From positions 1-64,000 of the IMG/VR virus record IMGVR_UViG_3300021197_001602: a stretch of 64,000 nt of DNA. One strand, 5' to 3'. The translations under genes were made by a program, and so were the position numbers. The notes beneath the pieces were generated by a model. It saw only the letters and a program-made list of their open reading frames with translations, was not told the DNA's origin and made no database searches. This DNA comes from a virus. Shown piece after piece: positions 739 through 63,087 of this stretch (positions are counted from its first letter, which is position 1; each line of letters opens with the position of its first letter).

Positions 739-1752
739 ATGTCTAGTATGCTAGAACAAGCTATCGTCGATGCGAAAGCACTCAAGGAAGCTGCCATTAA
801 AAGCGCAGAAACGGAATTACTCCAAAAATACTCAGAAGAAATGAAAGAAGCTGTCACTTCCCTATTGGAAGTTGAGGCTGATTTATCAATGGGCGCTGAT
901 GCAGCAATGCCATCAGAAGCACCTCCCTCATTTGCTGGTGGCGAGAACCTTTGTCCTTGCCCTGAAGATGAGGAAGAGTTCGTCGTTGACTTTTCACAAC
1001 TAAGAACACAAGCTGAAGAAGCCGAAGACGAAGGAGAGTCAATTGGCTCAGGTCTTGGCGGAGAAGAAGAATTCTCACTTGGCGATGAAGAAGGTCTTGG
1101 CGGAGAAGAAGACCTTGGACTAGGTGGAGAGGAAGAGGACGAAGAAGAACTCACTCTCGAAGAAAAAGCAATTCTCTCAGACATCTTTAATGAAGATGTT
1201 GTTCTCGATGTCATGAAAGACATGGTGAACGAAGAAGAAGATGAAGATAGTGATGAGGAAGAAGTAGAAGAAGAAGCTGGCGTAGATGTCGATGCTCTTG
1301 AGTCTGGCTTCCAGAAGAAGGAAGAACACCTTCAGAACACTATCGCTGAATTAGCAGAAAGATTAAAAGCTCAAATGAGCAAAACAAAAGAATACAAATC
1401 AGTCGTAGAAAAAATGACTGGTAGACTGGCTGAGGTCAATTTGTCCAACGCCAAGTTACTATATACGAATCGGGTTCTTAACAATACCTCCCTGAATGAG
1501 CGACAAAAGAATAAAATTGTCGAATCTATTGAAAGTGCCGTATCCGTGGTTGAGGCAAAGACTATCTTTGAAACACTTCAAAATGCTGTGAGCGTCGGCT
1601 CTGTTGCAAAAAGCAGAACTGCAAACTCACTTAGCGAAGCCGTTAGAAGAAATTCTTCACCTTACGCAATCCGTGGCAACGAAAGTGAGCCACAAAAGTT
1701 AAACGATGCATTCTCAGATAGAATGCGGAGATTAGCAGGCATCAATAAATAA
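739..1752 (+). CDS. Prohead core scaffold protein (gp22-like)
   Basis: This 337-residue, extremely acidic protein is helical at both ends: an N-terminal helix rich in Lys/Glu, a Glu/Asp/Gly low-complexity centre (residues 60-190), and a C-terminal coiled-coil half. Placement immediately before the gp23-like capsid gene, acidity and coiled-coil content match T4 gp22, the major core scaffold that is degraded by the prohead protease during maturation. The C-terminus carries RMRRLAGIN, and a related RMxxLAG string starts the acidic protein at 42336. The start ATG follows AAGGAG at about 726. The scaffold call rests on synteny and composition, not on a recognisable catalytic motif. Confidence 0.8.
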   Translation: MSSMLEQAIVDAKALKEAAIKSAETELLQKYSEEMKEAVTSLLEVEADLSMGADAAMPSEAPPSFAGGENLCPCPEDEEEFVVDFSQLRTQAEEAEDEGESIGSGLGGEEEFSLGDEEGLGGEEDLGLGGEEEDEEELTLEEKAILSDIFNEDVVLDVMKDMVNEEEDEDSDEEEVEEEAGVDVDALESGFQKKEEHLQNTIAELAERLKAQMSKTKEYKSVVEKMTGRLAEVNLSNAKLLYTNRVLNNTSLNERQKNKIVESIESAVSVVEAKTIFETLQNAVSVGSVAKSRTANSLSEAVRRNSSPYAIRGNESEPQKLNDAFSDRMRRLAGINK

Positions 1753-1778: not shown

Positions 1779-3746
1779 ATGTCTATTCTTAACAAACTAA
1801 CAGAAGGTATCGTCAATCGTGACCTTTCTCGTGATGGCGATGCTCTCCTCAATAAGTGGGAGAAAACAGGTCTTCTTGAGGGTCTTGACGATTACTCAAG
1901 AAACACAATGTCGGTTCTTTTAGAGAACCAAGCAAAGGAACTCCTTCGTGAGTCCAACACAATGCAGGGTGGCGATGTCGAAGGCTTCGCAGCAGTTGCA
2001 TTCCCAATCGTTCGTCGTGTATTCGGTGGTCTTTTGGCACAGAAGCTTGTATCGGTTCAGCCAATGAGCCTTCCAAGTGGTCTTATCTTCTTCATGGACT
2101 TCGTGAAGCAAGGACCAAACGCAGCCACAACAGGCTCAGACTACAATGGTGCTCCAAATAACCAGCAGCGTGGTGAGATGAATGTGCAAAACGACACTGC
2201 CACAGCTTCAGAGCCTTCGGTTTACGGTGGTCAGGTTAAAGGTCGTGGGATTCTCACCTCTGGTGCAGAGCTTGACCCTGAAGCCCGTGGTGCTGTAGGT
2301 GCAGGCAACCAAGCCCCAACACCTCAGTTTCAAGACTTGATTCAAGGTTTCTCAACCGCTCGTGCTCAAGGCGCTCCAACTGCTGGCGAGTGTGTCCTTG
2401 CCCGTGATGAAATCGTTCTTGACGGTTCATTGTCAGACGAAGAAGCTCAGGCTGTTCAGTTCGACCCAGACTTAATGGCTCGTTCTGGCAGCGAGCGTGT
2501 TCGTATTGTTCGTATTACAAGAACAAACTTCAACGCCATGCCCGCAGGAACTGGCGGAACTGGTCAGGCAACTTGCGGTGCAAGAATGTCAGGTCCAGAT
2601 ATTCGTCACTTGGCGGTTCAGGCTGCTGACGGCTCAACCCTTCGTGGCGTTTCCGATGTTGCTGCTGCTGCTGGAGACAATGTTGCACAGGTTCGTCGCT
2701 TGACTCGCCTTGTGACTGGTGATGGTTCAACCCGAGTTTACTCACACATGAACGACGCTGGTGTAGAATATGTTGAGTTCGTGATTGTTGGTATCGCCGA
2801 CGCAGACGGCTCAGCCTTCTCGACGGTTACTGCTTGTAATCAGGGTAACGAAGCAATGGACGGTCTCGGACTTGAGTTCGCTCTTGCCGACAACATTGCT
2901 GAAGCAACTGGTGCAACCTCTCCAAACCCAGACACTCTCGGTGCCCTTGTTGGTCAGACTGCATGGGAAATGGAAGGTTCAGTAGACCTGCCAGAAATCT
3001 CAATCAAGGTTGATTCAGTTGCAGTGACTTCGGTCACCCGTAAGCTGAAGGCTTCATGGTCACCTGAGCTTGCTCAAGACTTGAACGCTTATCATAACCT
3101 TGACGCAGAGGTCGAGTTGACTGGTATTCTTTCGGAGCAGATTGCTCTTGAAATTGACCAAGAAATTCTTGCTGACCTTATTGCTGGTGCAAAGGCTTCA
3201 AGCCTTTACTGGTCACGCCGTCCAGGTCTCTTCGTCAACCGTAAGACGGGTGCCGATGCGACTTCATTGGCTGCTCCACCTGATTTCACAGGTTCAGTAA
3301 GCGAATGGTACGAGACTCTCGTTGAAACTATCAACGATGTTTCGGCTGACATTCACCGCAAGACTCTTCGTGGTGGCGCTAACTTCTTGGTCTGTGGACC
3401 AGAGGTTGCAAACATCCTTGAGTTCACCAGTGGCTTCCGAGCTTCTGTAACTCATGATGACGACAGCGGTTCAGTTGGTGCTCAGCAAGTTGGTTCCATT
3501 TCTAAGAAGTGGGACTTGTATGTTGACCCATACTTCCCTCGTAACATCGTCCTTGTCGGGCGTAAGGGTAGCTCATTCCTCGAAAGTGGATATGTCTACG
3601 CTCCTTATGTACCTCTCCAGACGACACCAACCATCTTCCACGCAGATGACTTCACTCCCCGCAAGGCAGTGATGACTCGCTACGGCAAGAAGCTGGTCCG
3701 TCCTGACATGTACGGTCTTGTTGTTGTTCGTGACCTCGAAGGGTAA
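1779..3746 (+). CDS. Major capsid protein (gp23-like)
   Basis: A 655-residue HK97-fold capsid protein, longer than T4 gp23 (521). Residues 91-99 carry VQPMSLPSG, matching the QPM-x-x-P-x-G block of gp23, followed by FFMDF. The C-terminal part (YAPYVPLQTTPTIF, then MTRYGKKLVRPDMYG) is typical of gp23. An N-terminal delta-like region ends with LLRE at 55-58, fitting the (L/I)-x-E cleavage rule of T4 gp21, so mature protein probably begins near Ser59. Within that region, residues 23-35 read LLNKWEKTGLLEG, which resembles the N-terminal tag on the 54-63 kb proteins. Start ATG follows AGGAGG. Central insertions (about residues 190-380) could be an added surface domain. Confidence 0.95.
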   Translation: MSILNKLTEGIVNRDLSRDGDALLNKWEKTGLLEGLDDYSRNTMSVLLENQAKELLRESNTMQGGDVEGFAAVAFPIVRRVFGGLLAQKLVSVQPMSLPSGLIFFMDFVKQGPNAATTGSDYNGAPNNQQRGEMNVQNDTATASEPSVYGGQVKGRGILTSGAELDPEARGAVGAGNQAPTPQFQDLIQGFSTARAQGAPTAGECVLARDEIVLDGSLSDEEAQAVQFDPDLMARSGSERVRIVRITRTNFNAMPAGTGGTGQATCGARMSGPDIRHLAVQAADGSTLRGVSDVAAAAGDNVAQVRRLTRLVTGDGSTRVYSHMNDAGVEYVEFVIVGIADADGSAFSTVTACNQGNEAMDGLGLEFALADNIAEATGATSPNPDTLGALVGQTAWEMEGSVDLPEISIKVDSVAVTSVTRKLKASWSPELAQDLNAYHNLDAEVELTGILSEQIALEIDQEILADLIAGAKASSLYWSRRPGLFVNRKTGADATSLAAPPDFTGSVSEWYETLVETINDVSADIHRKTLRGGANFLVCGPEVANILEFTSGFRASVTHDDDSGSVGAQQVGSISKKWDLYVDPYFPRNIVLVGRKGSSFLESGYVYAPYVPLQTTPTIFHADDFTPRKAVMTRYGKKLVRPDMYGLVVVRDLEG

Positions 3747-44604: not shown

Positions 44605-44880
44605 ATGTCGGATTATCGGTTAACAGCCATAACGGAGTTTCTTAAGACGCTTTTGGGCGACCCACGCTGCATTAATATTGCAGATAATGTCGTCCATTGT
44701 GATAAGCTGTTTATGGTTAACGGAATAATGAAGTGGTTATACAATAAATTATCATCAGAAGAGATTGATATTGACTCAATGAGGGAATACCTTCTACTTA
44801 TTAATGAGTACCTGGACGACAATGTAGAGTTGTCTTGGGAACATGGCGAATTATCTTATACTAAAAAGGAGACTTACTAA
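44605..44880 (+). CDS. Small acidic helical protein, unknown
   Basis: A 91-residue product starting one base after the kinase stop, so likely translated with it. Helical (AITEFLKTLLGD; MKWLYNKLSSEEIDIDSMREYLLLINEYL in pieces), acidic. No family recognised. It could be an accessory or inhibitor of the kinase, but nothing in sequence proves that. Confidence 0.5.
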   Translation: MSDYRLTAITEFLKTLLGDPRCINIADNVVHCDKLFMVNGIMKWLYNKLSSEEIDIDSMREYLLLINEYLDDNVELSWEHGELSYTKKETY

Positions 44881-54474: not shown

Positions 54475-55837
54475 AAAGCTAAATGAGAACTGGAGCCAGT
54501 GGGCTTCACAAGGTTACCCGTCTGGTCCGAGGGCAGACCTATACGATGCTATTCGTGACCACTCCTTGGAGAAGACGGGAAGCAGGGAGACTTATGGCAA
54601 CTTTGACAAGCTCGACGCCATGAACGACGAAGAGCTAGAAAACTATGCCACAGAGCTAATGCCTCAGTTGCCTGGTGATGAAGGTCCATATGACGCAGAG
54701 GCTGAAGCCTCAGCTATGAGAGAGTCCGCAGGTGGAAAGCTTCAGTATTCTGTATCCAACACTGGCTATGGGGATGTGTATGAATTCTTCGATGAGAATG
54801 GCGAAGAGACAGAGCAGACTCTAGGAATGATGGTTCTCGACTTGGCTGATGCTGGAGTCGGAGGCTGGGCACCCGAAGAACAAATTGATAGAATGATGGC
54901 TGTCAACGCAGACCCAAGCAAAAATCAAGGTGGGATGCAGAAGTGGGACAGCAGCGTCTTTGAAGATTACTATGGCGCAGACAACCAAAAGATTCTCCAA
55001 GCTTGGGCTAAGATGAGCGGCATGGAGCTTGAGCAAATGCCTGAAGCCGAAGATGAGTATGAAGACGACGGCACCAATGACTTTGAAGAATACTATAGCG
55101 AAAGCAAGAAGCGTAATAAAATTCACGAAGGGCGATATCATTTCGCAAACGCCTTCGACCAACTTGACATTGGAGAAGACCCGAGAGCACAAGCGCTCGA
55201 ACAGTGCATAAAGATTCTTAATGAATTAACCTATGACTCTTTAGAAGGTGATGTCGCATCCTACGCAGATGATGCTGCTCGCCTGTTGTGGAAAGCAGCA
55301 GAAGAACTAGATTATAAAAGAAATCAAGTGGGCAATGTTGAAGAATCAGTGGTCGGAGACATGAAGAGTAAGTTTCAAGATATGCTTACCCTCGGCGGCA
55401 AGAAAGGCAAGAGTAAGGGCGCTGGAAAGGGAAAGAAGATGGTAACGCCCGAACAAATTAAGAAGTGGTGGGGAAGCCTGCCAGCATCGGAGAAGCTGAA
55501 GATTTCTTCAAAGATGAAGCTTCCACGCAAAATAAAAGATTGGGGCGACCAAGAGTGGACTAACGCAGCAAGCTATTTGCTGGACAACCCTGTTGAAGAG
55601 GCACTCAGCCCAGAAGACGAAAGAGCCAGCGAGCAGGCTTATGCGATGGCTTTCGAGAAAGGTAGAAAGGGTATGGCAGTTGTTGATGTATGTAACGGCT
55701 TGACTGGTATCGGACACAAGGCTTGCTTGGCAGGACATCAAGACGGCGCTAACGAGTTCAGGCAGTCGCTTGCAGAGCGTGTGCGTCAGACTGTGGTGCG
55801 AAAACTTACAGAAGCCAAAGGAGTCGAAAAGAAATGA
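54455..55837 (+). CDS. Large acidic protein, candidate packaged protein
   Basis: A 460-residue acidic protein starting inside the metallopeptidase gene. The N-terminus MKLKDFKKLNENWSQW is loosely like the tag on the following genes but lacks the (L/I)xE site at position 14. Repeated acidic segments (EDEYEDDGTNDFEEYY), a basic linker with KKGKSKGAGKGKK (about residues 305-320), and the KKWWGSLPASEKLKI segment. The C-terminus GFGHKACLAGHQDGANEF-like region contains GIGHKACLAGHQDG. No enzyme motif seen. It precedes the tagged proteins by an ATGA overlap. Confidence 0.5.
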   Translation: MKLKDFKKLNENWSQWASQGYPSGPRADLYDAIRDHSLEKTGSRETYGNFDKLDAMNDEELENYATELMPQLPGDEGPYDAEAEASAMRESAGGKLQYSVSNTGYGDVYEFFDENGEETEQTLGMMVLDLADAGVGGWAPEEQIDRMMAVNADPSKNQGGMQKWDSSVFEDYYGADNQKILQAWAKMSGMELEQMPEAEDEYEDDGTNDFEEYYSESKKRNKIHEGRYHFANAFDQLDIGEDPRAQALEQCIKILNELTYDSLEGDVASYADDAARLLWKAAEELDYKRNQVGNVEESVVGDMKSKFQDMLTLGGKKGKSKGAGKGKKMVTPEQIKKWWGSLPASEKLKISSKMKLPRKIKDWGDQEWTNAASYLLDNPVEEALSPEDERASEQAYAMAFEKGRKGMAVVDVCNGLTGIGHKACLAGHQDGANEFRQSLAERVRQTVVRKLTEAKGVEKK

Positions 55838-57276
55838 AAAACCTACTAACAGAGTGGCGGAAATATTTGAAAGAAGGGGAGGAGTCGGACTTTAAAGTAC
55901 ACACGATGTACAACCCTGAAACGGGAGAGTCCGATGAGGCTCAGTCGGAAGACGAGCACAACTCTCTTGCAGAGAAGGGATATGTCCATGTAGACCCTGA
56001 AGCTATCAGGCAGACTCTTAAAGCCGAAGGCGGGGCAGCAGGACTCGAAGCTATAATGGGCGCTGTTGATGCAGAAGAAGAAGAGTTGCAAAAAGCTATG
56101 ATGGCTATGCCAGATGTGGCACAGCATGAGAATGGTGATTATGTCATGTCTGATGAAGCCGAGGTGGAGGTCAAGAAGGAAGCTGCCGAGGTTAAAGATA
56201 AATACGACGATGAGGTTGAGCGCCGAAGCAAGAAGACAATGAAGCAGGGCTTGGCTTTTATGAAGAGCGAAGAAAGGCTGCAAAGTTTTGTATCTTCGAT
56301 TATTGACGAGGTAATGTCAGAGGGTGATGAGTGGTATAGCGATGAACACGAGACGCTGGCTGACAAGAAGTTTGCAGACTCTCAGGCTTCAGCGCAAGAA
56401 GGGCAAGGCTTCCAAGTAGGTGAGTTCGTTAATGTTGTTGATGGCTCGCTTAAGGGTGCTACTGGCAAGGTTATTGAAATTACCACCACTACAACTGGCG
56501 AAGAAGGTTATGTTATTGAACTTTACTCCGATGCCAAGATGAAAGTCTTCGGGCAAAGAGGTGACGAAGTTATTGCTGTTGCGGGAGACTTAGAGTCAGG
56601 CGGCACAACCGACGGCATGGAACTCTACGACATTGACGAAGCCAAGAACGAAGACGGCAAGGAACAGGGCGTTGATGGCAAGGCTTGCTGGAAAGGCAAG
56701 AAGTATGCTGGTTCTGAAGATACAGACGGCGACGGAAAGGCAGACAAAGACAAGTGCGTTCCAATGGAAGAAGCTGAGTTGGCTGAGCGAGGCTCGCCAC
56801 TTGAGAGTGGTCTCCAAACCGCAGTCCAAGATTTTATTATAGAGCAGATGCAAAAAATGGGCTTGAATGCTGGCGACCCAACAGACCGAGATAGAATTAA
56901 AAATCAAGTCATGTCAATTGTCAGCACCGCTATTTCAGCCATTGGCTTGGACGAATCAAAGAAGGTGGACGACAACCTCCAAGAGAATGTTGCAACTTTC
57001 ATCGATGACTTCTTTATTAAAGAGGAGACTGACAAGGAGCGCATGAAGTGCAACAGCCCTCGTTACATTAAGAAGGGCGAGCCTGGATACGGCAAGAAGC
57101 AAAAGGTTGTTAAGGCTTGCAAGGACGGCAAAGAAAAGATTATCCGCTTTGGTGATGCTAATATGGAAAATAAGAGCGACAGCAAGGATAACAAGTCAAA
57201 CTTTAGAAGTAGGCACAATTGCGATGAGAAGACGGATAAGTTCTCAGCAGGATACTGGTCTTGTAAAGATTGGTAG
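55834..57276 (+). CDS. Tagged acidic KOW/Ca-type protein
   Basis: A 480-residue protein starting MKNLLTEWRKYLKEG, the shared tag with L12-K-E14|G. A KOW-like segment (FQVGEFVNVVDGSLKGATGK, about 193-212), a thrombospondin-type Ca site (DTDGDGKADKDKC, about 298-310) and a C-terminal conserved phage domain (KCNSPRYIKKGEPGYGKK; FRSRHNCDEKTDK then YWSCKDW) follow. That last domain occurs in structural proteins of other marine phages. The acidic content suits a head-internal protein. The ATGA overlap couples it to the gene before. Confidence 0.7.
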   Translation: MKNLLTEWRKYLKEGEESDFKVHTMYNPETGESDEAQSEDEHNSLAEKGYVHVDPEAIRQTLKAEGGAAGLEAIMGAVDAEEEELQKAMMAMPDVAQHENGDYVMSDEAEVEVKKEAAEVKDKYDDEVERRSKKTMKQGLAFMKSEERLQSFVSSIIDEVMSEGDEWYSDEHETLADKKFADSQASAQEGQGFQVGEFVNVVDGSLKGATGKVIEITTTTTGEEGYVIELYSDAKMKVFGQRGDEVIAVAGDLESGGTTDGMELYDIDEAKNEDGKEQGVDGKACWKGKKYAGSEDTDGDGKADKDKCVPMEEAELAERGSPLESGLQTAVQDFIIEQMQKMGLNAGDPTDRDRIKNQVMSIVSTAISAIGLDESKKVDDNLQENVATFIDDFFIKEETDKERMKCNSPRYIKKGEPGYGKKQKVVKACKDGKEKIIRFGDANMENKSDSKDNKSNFRSRHNCDEKTDKFSAGYWSCKDW

Positions 57277-57514: not shown

Positions 57515-58179
57515 AAAAACTACTAACAGAATGGCGGAAGTTCTTAGCCGAGGGCACCGACCCACGAATCCAGAAACAAATTAACATGCTGCTTGCTCTT
57601 CCAAAGGGTATCGGCATCGTTGGTGATTCTGAAGATTCCTTTGGCATGTCATTTAAGTATGCTGAGTTTCACGAGAATGGTTACGATACTCTTGGCGATG
57701 ATGGCAATGACGAAGGCATCCCCCATGGCTCTGTGGACATCATGGAGACGGAATCAGATGCAGAAGGTCCATGCTTCGGCGGCTTTACGGTCATCGGAAG
57801 CAGCGCAGCCAAGGGTTGGGGTCCACTTCTTTATGAGGTTGCAATTGAATGGGCTTCGCAAGAAGGCGGCGGACTGACAGCAGATAGATTCTCAGTGTCG
57901 GACAACGCTCAGGCTGTTTGGGATAAATATGGAAAGAGAGGGGATGTAAAGGGCAATCAAATGGATGTGAGCCACAACCCCGAAGGGGCTGGAGCAAGGT
58001 TGAACAAAACAGTTCCCCAGCTTACACCAGATGACGAGTCTGACGACTGTGACCAAGCCCGAGCTATATCAAAGCATGGACCCGACTGGCATAAAGACCC
58101 GACAACAAGAATGTATAAGAAAGATAACGCAGAGGTGATGCAAGCCCTCAAGGCAGCAGGGAGGCTGTTCATAGCATGA
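57511..58179 (+). CDS. Tagged GNAT-like acetyltransferase candidate
   Basis: A 222-residue protein starting MKKLLTEWRKFLAEG (L12-A-E14|G). The body (residues about 70-150) has FGGFTVIGSSAAKGWGPLLYEVAIEWAS with an acetyl-CoA-type G-x-G-P-L-L turn and a SVSDNAQAVWDKYGKRGDVK helix, a layout seen in phage GNAT-type proteins. I use ATG 57511; upstream in-frame codons overlap the preceding gene. If packaged it could modify a host protein or tRNA just after injection. Confidence 0.65.
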   Translation: MKKLLTEWRKFLAEGTDPRIQKQINMLLALPKGIGIVGDSEDSFGMSFKYAEFHENGYDTLGDDGNDEGIPHGSVDIMETESDAEGPCFGGFTVIGSSAAKGWGPLLYEVAIEWASQEGGGLTADRFSVSDNAQAVWDKYGKRGDVKGNQMDVSHNPEGAGARLNKTVPQLTPDDESDDCDQARAISKHGPDWHKDPTTRMYKKDNAEVMQALKAAGRLFIA

Positions 58180-58805
58180 AATACTTAATGGAAAATTGGA
58201 GAAGATATTTGAAAGAGGGCGACACAATTGCCCTTGGTAAGTGCTATCCGTTTGCCAATAGAATGGCAATGAAGTGGTCAGATGACAATATTGACAAAAC
58301 AAAGCCTCCTGGTAAGGGCGTCCACCCAGATATTGATAATAAAGATAAGTTTAAGGTTGTGCACGGTCGCATAACCGACAAGTTCAGTGGAGAAAGCGTA
58401 GACCATGCTTGGGTCGAGATGGGCGATTTGGTTTTCGACGACCAAACACAACACACAAAGCCAGATGGAATCCCGAAAGCCACCTATTACGATTTGTATC
58501 AGCCAGAAGTACAGGCAGAGTACACAGCCGAAGAGTCTATGATTAATTGCGTGAAGTCTGGGCACGAAGGTCCGTGGAATGAAGACCTTCAGTTGCAAGA
58601 AGCAATCACTCTTGACATTGAAGTTGGAGATATTGTTCTCGGTGGTAAATATAAAAATAAAAGAATTGAAGTAAAAGAGATTGGCACCGATGAGATTGGT
58701 CAGCCGACCATCAACGGCAAGTCTCTTTTAAAGTTTAGAATTGAAAAGCATCTTCCCGATGAAAAGAAGTCGAAGAAGACGCTTGATGCAGAAAAAGATA
58801 AATAA
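58176..58805 (+). CDS. Tagged Cys-His-Asp fold protein (transglutaminase/papain-like)
   Basis: A 209-residue protein starting MKYLMENWRRYLKEG (L12-K-E14|G). GKCYPFANRM offers a nucleophile Cys near 23, VVHGRITD and VDHAWVEMGDLVFDDQT supply His and Asp, the order of a papain/transglutaminase-like triad. A C-terminal barrel (VGDIVLGGKYKNKRIEVKEI, then INGKSLLKFRIEK) resembles a domain in other phage proteins. Peptidase, deamidase or transglutaminase activity is possible; the residues are visible but not proven. Coupled to the gene before it by ATGA. Confidence 0.6.
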   Translation: MKYLMENWRRYLKEGDTIALGKCYPFANRMAMKWSDDNIDKTKPPGKGVHPDIDNKDKFKVVHGRITDKFSGESVDHAWVEMGDLVFDDQTQHTKPDGIPKATYYDLYQPEVQAEYTAEESMINCVKSGHEGPWNEDLQLQEAITLDIEVGDIVLGGKYKNKRIEVKEIGTDEIGQPTINGKSLLKFRIEKHLPDEKKSKKTLDAEKDK

Positions 58806-62320: not shown

Positions 62321-62518
62321 ATGTGTATCATATGTGTAGAGCTTGAAAAGAACAGGCTTACTTTATTAGAAGCAAGAAGAAACTATGGGGAGATGGTCGA
62401 CTCTATCGACGAAAGCCATCGAGAAGAATTAGAGAAAAAGTTATACCCAGATACTATTTATGATGAAGAGTATTATGAATACTTTAATTTTATCAAAGGA
62501 ACGAGCGGGTCAGATTGA
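62321..62518 (+). CDS. Small conserved acidic protein with CxxC
   Basis: A 65-residue protein beginning MCIICVELEKNRLTLLEARRNYGEMVDSID (in pieces). The MCIICVE start and LEARR-x-GEM block occur in a family of small marine-phage proteins. A zinc or redox role for Cys2-Cys5 is possible. Carries the ACTATTTA copy at 62453 in its coding region. Confidence 0.55.
   Translation: MCIICVELEKNRLTLLEARRNYGEMVDSIDESHREELEKKLYPDTIYDEEYYEYFNFIKGTSGSD
62453..62460 (+). promoter_or_regulatory. ACTATTTA element within 62321 gene
   Basis: ACTATTTATGATG, 68 bases before the ATG of the tagged ART-like gene. Intragenic, so weaker than the intergenic copies. Confidence 0.35.
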
Positions 62519-62520
62519 TT

Positions 62521-63087
62521 ATGAAAAAACTATTAACAGAATGGCGTAAGTATTTAAAAGAAGAGGGAGAGGCTCCAGCAGAACAAGCTACAGCTTATTT
62601 TGATGGTGGCATCTATCATGGAGTTTCCCAAGCAAACTTGGATGGTCTTCGTGACCAGGGCATCGGCAACATGCCGAGCGAAATGGATATCGAGGAAGAG
62701 AAGGCAGGTGTGCCTTGTTCGCTCAAACCTCAAGAAGCCCGCAAGCATGGAGATGTAGTTCTTGAGCTTGACATGGAATCGATAGAGGGCTCTGGGCAAT
62801 ATATGATTTCCCCAGACAAAGAGAACGACCACGGAACCCGAATTACGATGGTGGACTCAGCCTACGATTCAGGTCACGGTGTTCACGATATGGTAGATAG
62901 CTTGGGCACGAATATTCCGTTCAGCTTTGTCAAGCGAGTTATATTCCCCCAAGGTTCAATTCCAGATGTTCAAGGCATGAGAGAGGGCGGCTTCAGTGGT
63001 GTAGAGATTGCAAGCTTTGCGGAGGACGAATCACAGGGTCTTGTCCGTCATTGGACCCCAGGAGATGAGTTGGGCGAAAGCCGCTAA
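62521..63087 (+). CDS. Tagged ADP-ribosyltransferase-like protein (Alt-like candidate)
   Basis: A 188-residue protein starting MKKLLTEWRKYLKEEG (L12-K-E14). After the tag, YHGVSQANLDGLRDQGIG (residues 32-49) is the opening strand and helix of an ADP-ribosyltransferase/Tpt1-type fold, in which the H-G-x-S motif binds NAD. The middle (VVLELDMESIEG; YMISPDKEN) and VKRVIFPQG suit the rest of such a fold. T4 Alt is a packaged ADP-ribosyltransferase of the host polymerase, so the combination of tag and fold is suggestive. The ATG starts two bases after the previous stop. Confidence 0.6.
   Translation: MKKLLTEWRKYLKEEGEAPAEQATAYFDGGIYHGVSQANLDGLRDQGIGNMPSEMDIEEEKAGVPCSLKPQEARKHGDVVLELDMESIEGSGQYMISPDKENDHGTRITMVDSAYDSGHGVHDMVDSLGTNIPFSFVKRVIFPQGSIPDVQGMREGGFSGVEIASFAEDESQGLVRHWTPGDELGESR

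What the first reader, a model, noticed from the sequence alone, without database searches (positions are those of the whole stretch)
62521..63087. Tagged ADP-ribosyltransferase-like protein may be an Alt analogue
The tag is followed by YHGVSQANLDGLRDQGIG, the usual opening of NAD-binding ADP-ribosyltransferase/Tpt1 folds. In T4, Alt is packaged in the head and modifies host RNA polymerase on entry. The same logic is present here at about one quarter of the length of Alt.
Basis: partly seen in the sequence, partly recalled or inferred. Interest (0 to 1): 0.75.

Follow-up and report, generated by a model that had tools for sequence, protein, structure and literature searches.

The report
Capsid-tagged Tpt1-like ADP-ribosyltransferase of phage
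This gene of an uncultivated T4-like phage joins a short address label, of the kind that loads proteins into the phage head and is then cut off, to a small NAD-using enzyme fold; the same label sits on more than a hundred unrelated protein families in related phages, so it may be a readable list of proteins these phages inject into their hosts.

Summary
The ORF is real (62521-63087, 188 aa) and under purifying selection. Its first 14 residues (MKKLLTEWRKYLKE) recur on four other window genes and, in all, on 275 ORFs (126 otherwise unrelated clusters) in related viral contigs. Identity between tagged proteins drops abruptly after Glu14, and the tag ends in L-x-E, the cleavage motif of the T4 prohead protease gp21. 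A gp21-type (S77) protease is in 10 of 17 tagged records, and the virus has a T4 gp23-type capsid protein with its own conserved LxE site. The tag is best read as a T4-type capsid-targeting propeptide. The rest is ART-like: models of this protein and of a homologue match the NAD lobe of Tpt1/KptA (then DarT, PARPs), and a KptA profile ranks this family first among 126 tagged clusters (HHalign 95%). It is not of the Alt (R-S-E) type and lacks Tpt1's RNA lobe and tetrad. His33 is Tyr in two homologues, which instead keep the Thr of the HGT motif. 'Head-packaged ART' is well supported by inference and 'Alt-like delivery' is reasonable; 'Alt family' or 'modifies RNA polymerase' is not supported. 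Two other tagged proteins pass the Pfam ART-PolyVal cut-off. No experiment exists.

The parts
62521..63087 (+). Tagged ART-like (Tpt1 NAD-lobe-like) protein, 188 aa
   Evidence: ORF; fold; profile
62521..62562 (+). Capsid-targeting-type tag MKKLLTEWRKYLKE with predicted gp21-type cleavage after Glu14 (Leu12-Lys13-Glu14)
   Evidence: Conservation ends at LxE; L/I-x-E specificity of gp21 from PMC9026906
62614..62667 (+). Motif 1, YHGVSQANLDGLRDQGIG: first strand and helix; His33 corresponds to the His of Tpt1 HGT
   Evidence: hhalign; DSSP; alignment
62710..62772 (+). Motif 2, VPCSLKPQEARKHGDVVLELD (residues 64-84): corresponds to KptA VHLS...RHG..V; Lys75-His76 at KptA Arg-His
   Evidence: hhalign; alignments
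62905..62946 (+). GTNIPF (invariant) plus strand VKRVIF (residues 129-142), resembling KptA VPxxYI
   Evidence: Alignments; correspondence by eye, not covered by the hhalign block
55834..57276 (+). Sibling tagged ORF (MKNLLTEWRKYLKE), 480 aa
57511..58179 (+). Sibling tagged ORF (MKKLLTEWRKFLAE), 222 aa, GNAT-like by eye
58176..58805 (+). Sibling tagged ORF (MKYLMENWRRYLKE), 209 aa
58916..59170 (+). Sibling tagged ORF (MKLIMEKWRRYTTQ), 84 aa; divergent tag end without LxE
1779..3746 (+). T4 gp23-type major capsid protein
   Evidence: Pfam Gp23 E 1e-71; PHROG
1944..1952 (+). Predicted capsid-protein maturation site Leu-Arg-Glu58
   Evidence: LxE at 58/59 conserved in 6 relatives
739..1752 (+). 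Acidic, LxE-rich protein just upstream of the capsid protein; possible scaffold (gp22 position)
   Evidence: Sequence and position; no PHROG match
62321..62518 (+). Small upstream gene conserved in the homologous loci; function unknown
   Evidence: Synteny in L068 and L069
63105..63449 (+). Downstream conserved small protein (weak HAS-barrel/PUA match)

Best explanation
The gene encodes an internal head protein of an uncultivated T4-type myovirus. Residues 1-14 are a capsid-targeting propeptide. It brings the protein into the prohead core and is then cut after Leu-x-Glu14 by a gp21-type (S77) protease, leaving a mature protein of about 174 residues inside the head that enters the host with the DNA. 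The mature part is a single ART-superfamily domain of the Tpt1/KptA-DarT-like (H-type) branch that most likely binds NAD and ADP-ribosylates a host molecule early in infection. Shown by computation: the ORF, the shared tag and its boundary at LxE, the S77 protease in tagged relatives, the T4-type capsid protein with its own LxE site, and the fold. Inferred: packaging, cleavage, injection, NAD use, catalysis and target.
For: Tag: 126 otherwise unrelated clusters share it. Glu at W+6 (103 of 126) was not part of the selecting pattern; conservation falls from 2.46 to 0.62 to 0.2 bits after it, and identity of tagged proteins in one locus falls from 0.72 to 0.12 to about 0.05 after residue 14. MKLIMENWR has 37 distinct codings, so selection is on the protein. 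S77 protease in 10 of 17 tagged records and 0 of 14 control genomes. Capsid-protein LxE at 58/59 in 6 relatives and the window. gp21 cuts L/I-x-E, and the first 10 residues of IPIII suffice for targeting (PMC9026906). Fold: Foldseek PDB rank 1 is yeast Tpt1 (prob 1.00, E 4e-3); for homologue L068, ranks 1-16 are all Tpt1/KptA (prob 1.00), followed by DarT and PARPs. KptA profile against 126 tagged clusters: this family first (95%, E 4e-8), next an ART-PolyVal protein (75%), the rest 15% or less. Other tagged proteins above the ART-PolyVal cut-off: L004:6001 and L042:2849.
Against: No proteomics or enzymology. The window's own record (79.6-kb fragment) has no S77 match. His33 is Tyr in L068 and L069, so catalysis may be lost in part of the family. 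The models have modest confidence (pLDDT 70 and 74) from only 4 sequences, and TM-scores are 0.4-0.6. No Pfam or PHROG family matches the protein directly. No T4-late-promoter enrichment upstream of tagged genes.
Confidence: 0.72

Rival explanations
1. A packaged, ART-fold protein without catalysis: it binds NAD, ADP-ribose or nucleic acid, for example blocking a host NAD-dependent defence, rather than transferring ADP-ribose.
For: His33 to Tyr in L068/L069, loss of the KptA Arg-His pair there (SFG/PYG), Thr of HGT lost in window/L067. From memory, a His-to-Tyr change of this kind is found in the inactive PARP13.
Against: Window and L067 keep His plus Lys/Arg-His; L068/L069 keep the Thr, and in Tpt1 the His and Thr of HGT are suspected to be redundant contacts (PMC6333775), so each homologue keeps one of the two. 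Other tagged cargo includes regular ART-PolyVal domains.
Confidence: 0.22
2. The tag is not a packaging signal but another targeting or docking element (for example to the replication compartment or the membrane) shared by many phage proteins.
For: Direct packaging evidence is lacking; tagged cargo includes enzymes that could also act inside the infected cell (NUDIX, HD, kinases).
Against: Boundary at L-x-E, co-occurrence with an S77 protease, same length class as T4 propeptides (10-20 residues, PMC5694885), resemblance to T4 IPII/IPIII MKTYQEFIAE and Alt MELITELFDE.
Confidence: 0.12
3. An active RNA 2'-phosphotransferase (true Tpt1/KptA) carried in the head for RNA repair.
For: Best structural and profile match is Tpt1/KptA.
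Against: No N-terminal RNA lobe; three of the four tetrad residues lie in that lobe and the fourth Arg is Lys or Ser (tetrad from PMC6333775).
Confidence: 0.03
4. A homologue of T4 Alt that modifies host RNA polymerase.
For: Same delivery logic as T4 Alt (PMC9026906; PMC9503650).
Against: The Alt clade uses Arg-Ser-Glu (PMC5512222); this family has no such layout and no Alt-type match in any search.
Confidence: 0.03

Closest known systems
T4 internal head proteins and Alt (capsid targeting sequence, processed by gp21)
   Same: Short N-terminal propeptide ending in a hydrophobic residue-x-Glu, highly variable cargo behind it, T4-type capsid protein and S77 protease, ART among the cargo
   Different: Tag is 14 residues with an EWRK/ENWR core not found in T4; it is spread over 126 clusters instead of a few proteins; the ART is of a different class; no experimental proof
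Tpt1/KptA RNA 2'-phosphotransferase (NAD lobe)
   Same: Fold, order of motifs (YHGx, S...[KR]HG, IPxxxV), profile match
   Different: No RNA lobe, no Arg-His-Arg-Arg tetrad, extra C-terminal region with conserved E-I-x-[ST]-F, head tag in front
DarT DNA ADP-ribosyltransferases
   Same: ART fold; second-best structural family
   Different: Weaker match; catalytic residues not mapped; no DarG-like partner noticed beside it (not searched for specifically)
ART-PolyVal (PF18760) and polyvalent phage proteins
   Same: ARTs predicted to be packaged and injected; two other tagged cargo proteins pass this family's cut-off
   Different: The window protein does not match PF18760; here small single-domain cargos share a tag instead of being fused into one long protein

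Membership tests
ADP-ribosyltransferase superfamily | ART core fold | tested here: met
   Two AlphaFold models of moderate confidence; Foldseek PDB hits headed by Tpt1, then DarT and PARPs
ADP-ribosyltransferase superfamily | Conserved NAD-contacting residue in motif 1 (His of HGT, or Arg) | tested here: inconclusive
   His33 in window and L067; Tyr in L068/L069, which keep the Thr instead
ADP-ribosyltransferase superfamily | NAD-dependent activity | not testable with these tools
   Needs biochemistry
T4 Alt family (R-S-E ART) | Arg-Ser-Glu active site | tested here: not met
   Motif 1 carries His or Tyr; no STS or ExE motif in the alignment; class defined in PMC5512222
T4 Alt family (R-S-E ART) | Head-packaged and injected | not testable with these tools
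   Inferred only, from the tag
Tpt1/KptA | N-terminal RNA lobe with the Arg-His and Arg of the tetrad | tested here: not met
   Only 17 residues between tag and motif 1; KptA alignment
Tpt1/KptA | NAD-lobe fold and motif order | tested here: met
   hhalign 81% pairwise, 95% in the scan with the KptA profile; Foldseek
T4-type capsid-targeted internal proteins | N-terminal propeptide of about 10-20 residues shared by unrelated cargos | tested here: met
   length range from PMC5694885
T4-type capsid-targeted internal proteins | L/I-x-E cleavage motif at its end | tested here: met
   [LIVM]xE in place in 101 of 126 clusters, and LKE in this protein
T4-type capsid-targeted internal proteins | gp21-type (S77) prohead protease in the same virus | tested here: inconclusive
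   Present in 10 of 17 tagged records, all at least 139 kb; not in the window's 79.6-kb fragment
T4-type capsid-targeted internal proteins | Presence in the virion, processed | not testable with these tools
   Needs proteomics

The most novel reading that the evidence does not exclude
A clade of uncultivated T4-like phages uses one standard 14-residue capsid-targeting tag as a socket for a large, exchangeable set of mostly small proteins (more than 100 families: ARTs of several classes, acetyltransferases, kinases, NUDIX, DNA methylases, peptidases), loaded into the head and delivered at entry; the window protein is a new Tpt1-related ART family within it.
Probability: 0.6. Interest if true: 0.78.

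Novelty: new variant of a known kind. Interest (0 to 1): 0.64.

Why it matters
T4 carries only a handful of capsid-targeted proteins, and head-packaged ARTs elsewhere have been predicted mainly from fusion partners and gene neighbourhood (PMC9503650). Here the sequence itself carries a short, recognisable label. If it is a packaging signal, injected proteins can be listed straight from metagenomic phage genomes, including families with no known domain, and each becomes a candidate for host take-over or counter-defence. The window protein would add a small Tpt1-type ART without an RNA lobe to the injected enzymes.

Tried and rejected
Direct family matches: none in Pfam or PHROGs. PDB sequence search with the family profile: no meaningful hit. 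Relatives of the cargo domain in INPHARED phages or GTDB genomes: none; in IMG/VR only four related contigs. Tag in cultured phages: no tblastn match with 20-aa queries, a weak test without a positive control; the DNA pattern is absent from four records with near capsid proteins (three isolates and one uncultured record), although all four have an S77 match. T4-type late promoters: TATAAATA is over-represented in the window (12 against 1.4 expected), but tagged genes are not preferentially preceded by it (13 against 26 on the control strand), so that link is dropped. The ClpP-like protein at 44843 was considered as the tag-cutting protease; the S77 enzyme of relatives fits better. An R-S-E-looking tagged protein (L051:1380-1886) would be a closer Alt analogue, but it has no Pfam match, no phage relative and no homologue beyond its own contig except through the tag, so it stays a reading by eye. 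RNA families and tRNAs in the window: none.

Full report
What is there. The ORF at 62521-63087 is present as described and codes for 188 residues. The window is part of a 79,635-bp linear IMG/VR record. It carries a T4 gp23-type capsid protein (Pfam Gp23, E 1e-71), a contractile tail sheath and DnaB helicase, and DNA polymerase, ribonucleotide reductase and GroEL. The best capsid-protein matches in INPHARED are from an uncultured 484-kb phage, Flavobacterium phage immuto, Microcystis phage Mel-JY01 and Rhodothermus phage RM378, all under 60% identity. The window is thus from a T4-type myovirus without a close cultured relative.

The tag. The first 14 residues recur on four more ORFs in the window, at 55834, 57511, 58176 and 58916. 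The window and related contigs gave 275 tagged ORFs in 126 clusters after the tag was removed. The selecting pattern did not include the Glu at W+6, yet it is there in 103 of 126 clusters, with [LIVM]-x-E in exact register in 101 (the first of these positions was partly selected). Conservation is 2.46 bits at that Glu, then 0.62 and 0.2. For 294 pairs of unrelated tagged proteins lying in the same locus, identity is 0.72 at residue 14, 0.12 at 15 and about 0.05 from 16 on. The same nine residues are coded in up to 37 ways, so selection acts on the protein and not the DNA. All 25 records examined have the tag in its DNA form, and none has the reversed control pattern.

Why a capsid-targeting propeptide. 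In T4, internal proteins and Alt carry short propeptides. Ten residues of IPIII suffice for packaging, and gp21 cuts C-terminal to L/I-x-E (PMC9026906). T4 propeptides of this kind are 10-20 residues long (PMC5694885). The T4 record itself gives MKTYQEFIAE for IPII and IPIII and MELITELFDE for Alt. The tag ends like the IPs, with aromatic-[LI]-x-E. A gp21-type protease (Peptidase_S77) is over the cut-off in 10 of 17 tagged records and in none of 14 control genomes. The seven without it, including the window's record, range from 75 to 147 kb and may be fragments. In six relatives the capsid protein lies a few kb from the protease and keeps LxE at residues 9, 34, 49/50 and 58/59; the window's own capsid protein has the same sites. 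This is consistent with LxE maturation in the same viruses. Packaging and cleavage of tagged proteins remain inferred.

The cargo domain. No Pfam or PHROG family matches. Homologues were found in IMG/VR only: L067 (and L186, with identical scores), L068 and L069, at 41-59% identity. The three examined are tagged, and share flanking genes with the window. AlphaFold on the four sequences gave pLDDT 70 for the window protein and 74 for L068. Foldseek against the PDB put yeast Tpt1 first for the window protein (prob 1.00, E 4e-3). For L068 it put Tpt1/KptA structures at ranks 1-16 with probability 1.00, followed by DarT and PARPs. A KptA profile (ten sequences from E. coli, plasmids and phages) scanned against all 126 de-tagged clusters ranked this family first (95%, E 4e-8), an ART-PolyVal protein second (75%) and everything else at 15% or less. 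That evidence is independent of the models.

Active site. [quoted passage not shown] The window and L067 proteins read YHGV and YHAV, with Lys-His and Arg-His at the KptA Arg-His position. L068 and L069 read YYGT, with Ser-Phe and Pro-Tyr there. Each homologue thus keeps one of the two HGT contacts, but the second group has lost more. The RNA lobe is missing altogether. I therefore think an NAD-using ART is most likely for the window protein, not an RNA 2'-phosphotransferase, and do not exclude a binding-only protein.

Alt analogue? The delivery logic is the same. The enzyme class is not: Alt is R-S-E (PMC5512222). The target is unknown. Among other tagged cargos, L004:6001-6573 and L042:2849-3379 pass the ART-PolyVal cut-off. 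An ART-like first motif occurs soon after the tag in 12 of 126 clusters, of which I read about nine as ART-like by eye; the same pattern hits 4 of 93 in a control stretch further in. Packaged ARTs thus seem a recurrent theme, in line with the prediction that head-packaged ARTs are widespread (PMC9503650) and with the suggestion that the CTS lets T4-like phages incorporate various proteins (PMC9026906). No relevant paper in the library mentions the tag sequence.

Scope of the claim. The window protein is a new family on a known plan; the number of cargos behind one tag is the surprising part.

Noticed in passing
L003-L186 (126 tagged clusters): Tagged cargo includes GNAT acetyltransferases, NUDIX, Zeta-toxin/AAA kinases, C39 and M23 peptidases, HD, C5 DNA methylase, ParB-like and nucleotidase domains.
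   Followed up: partly
L051:1380-1886: Tagged 169-aa protein with YRGM...SWTT...ESEV, which looks like an R-S-E ART (Alt class); no relative found.
   Followed up: partly
L067:3684-4355: Tagged 224-aa protein that looks like an HD/RelA-SpoT-type hydrolase.
   Followed up: no
window:58176-58805: C-terminal ~60 residues (LDIEVGDIVLGGKYKNKR...) recur as a stand-alone tagged ORF in L027, L042 and L050: a mobile cargo module.
   Followed up: no
window:59819-62176: 785-aa Cys-rich protein with repeated CDGxDNDCDGxxDE motifs, upstream of the finding; similar proteins sit at the same place in L068 and L069. From memory such repeats recall MopE-like proteins of Myxococcota.
   Followed up: no
window:1-64000: TATAAATA (T4 late promoter) is over-represented, 12 against 1.4 expected, but 8 of 12 are on the minus strand where few genes lie; the one at 702 precedes the putative scaffold gene.
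   Followed up: partly
window:43362-44603: Zeta-toxin/AAA_33-type kinase domain without a tag.
   Followed up: no
window:52594-53523: Mom-like DNA modification protein (Pfam Mom E 1e-11).
   Followed up: no
window:44843-47203: ClpP-type protease with a charged N-terminal extension, next to a 529-aa protein with several N-terminal LxE sites.
   Followed up: no
L002:12433-16078: Array of short paralogous ORFs starting M(K/Q)(V/I)GDLV (KOW/SH3-like by eye) in tandem near the record end.
   Followed up: no
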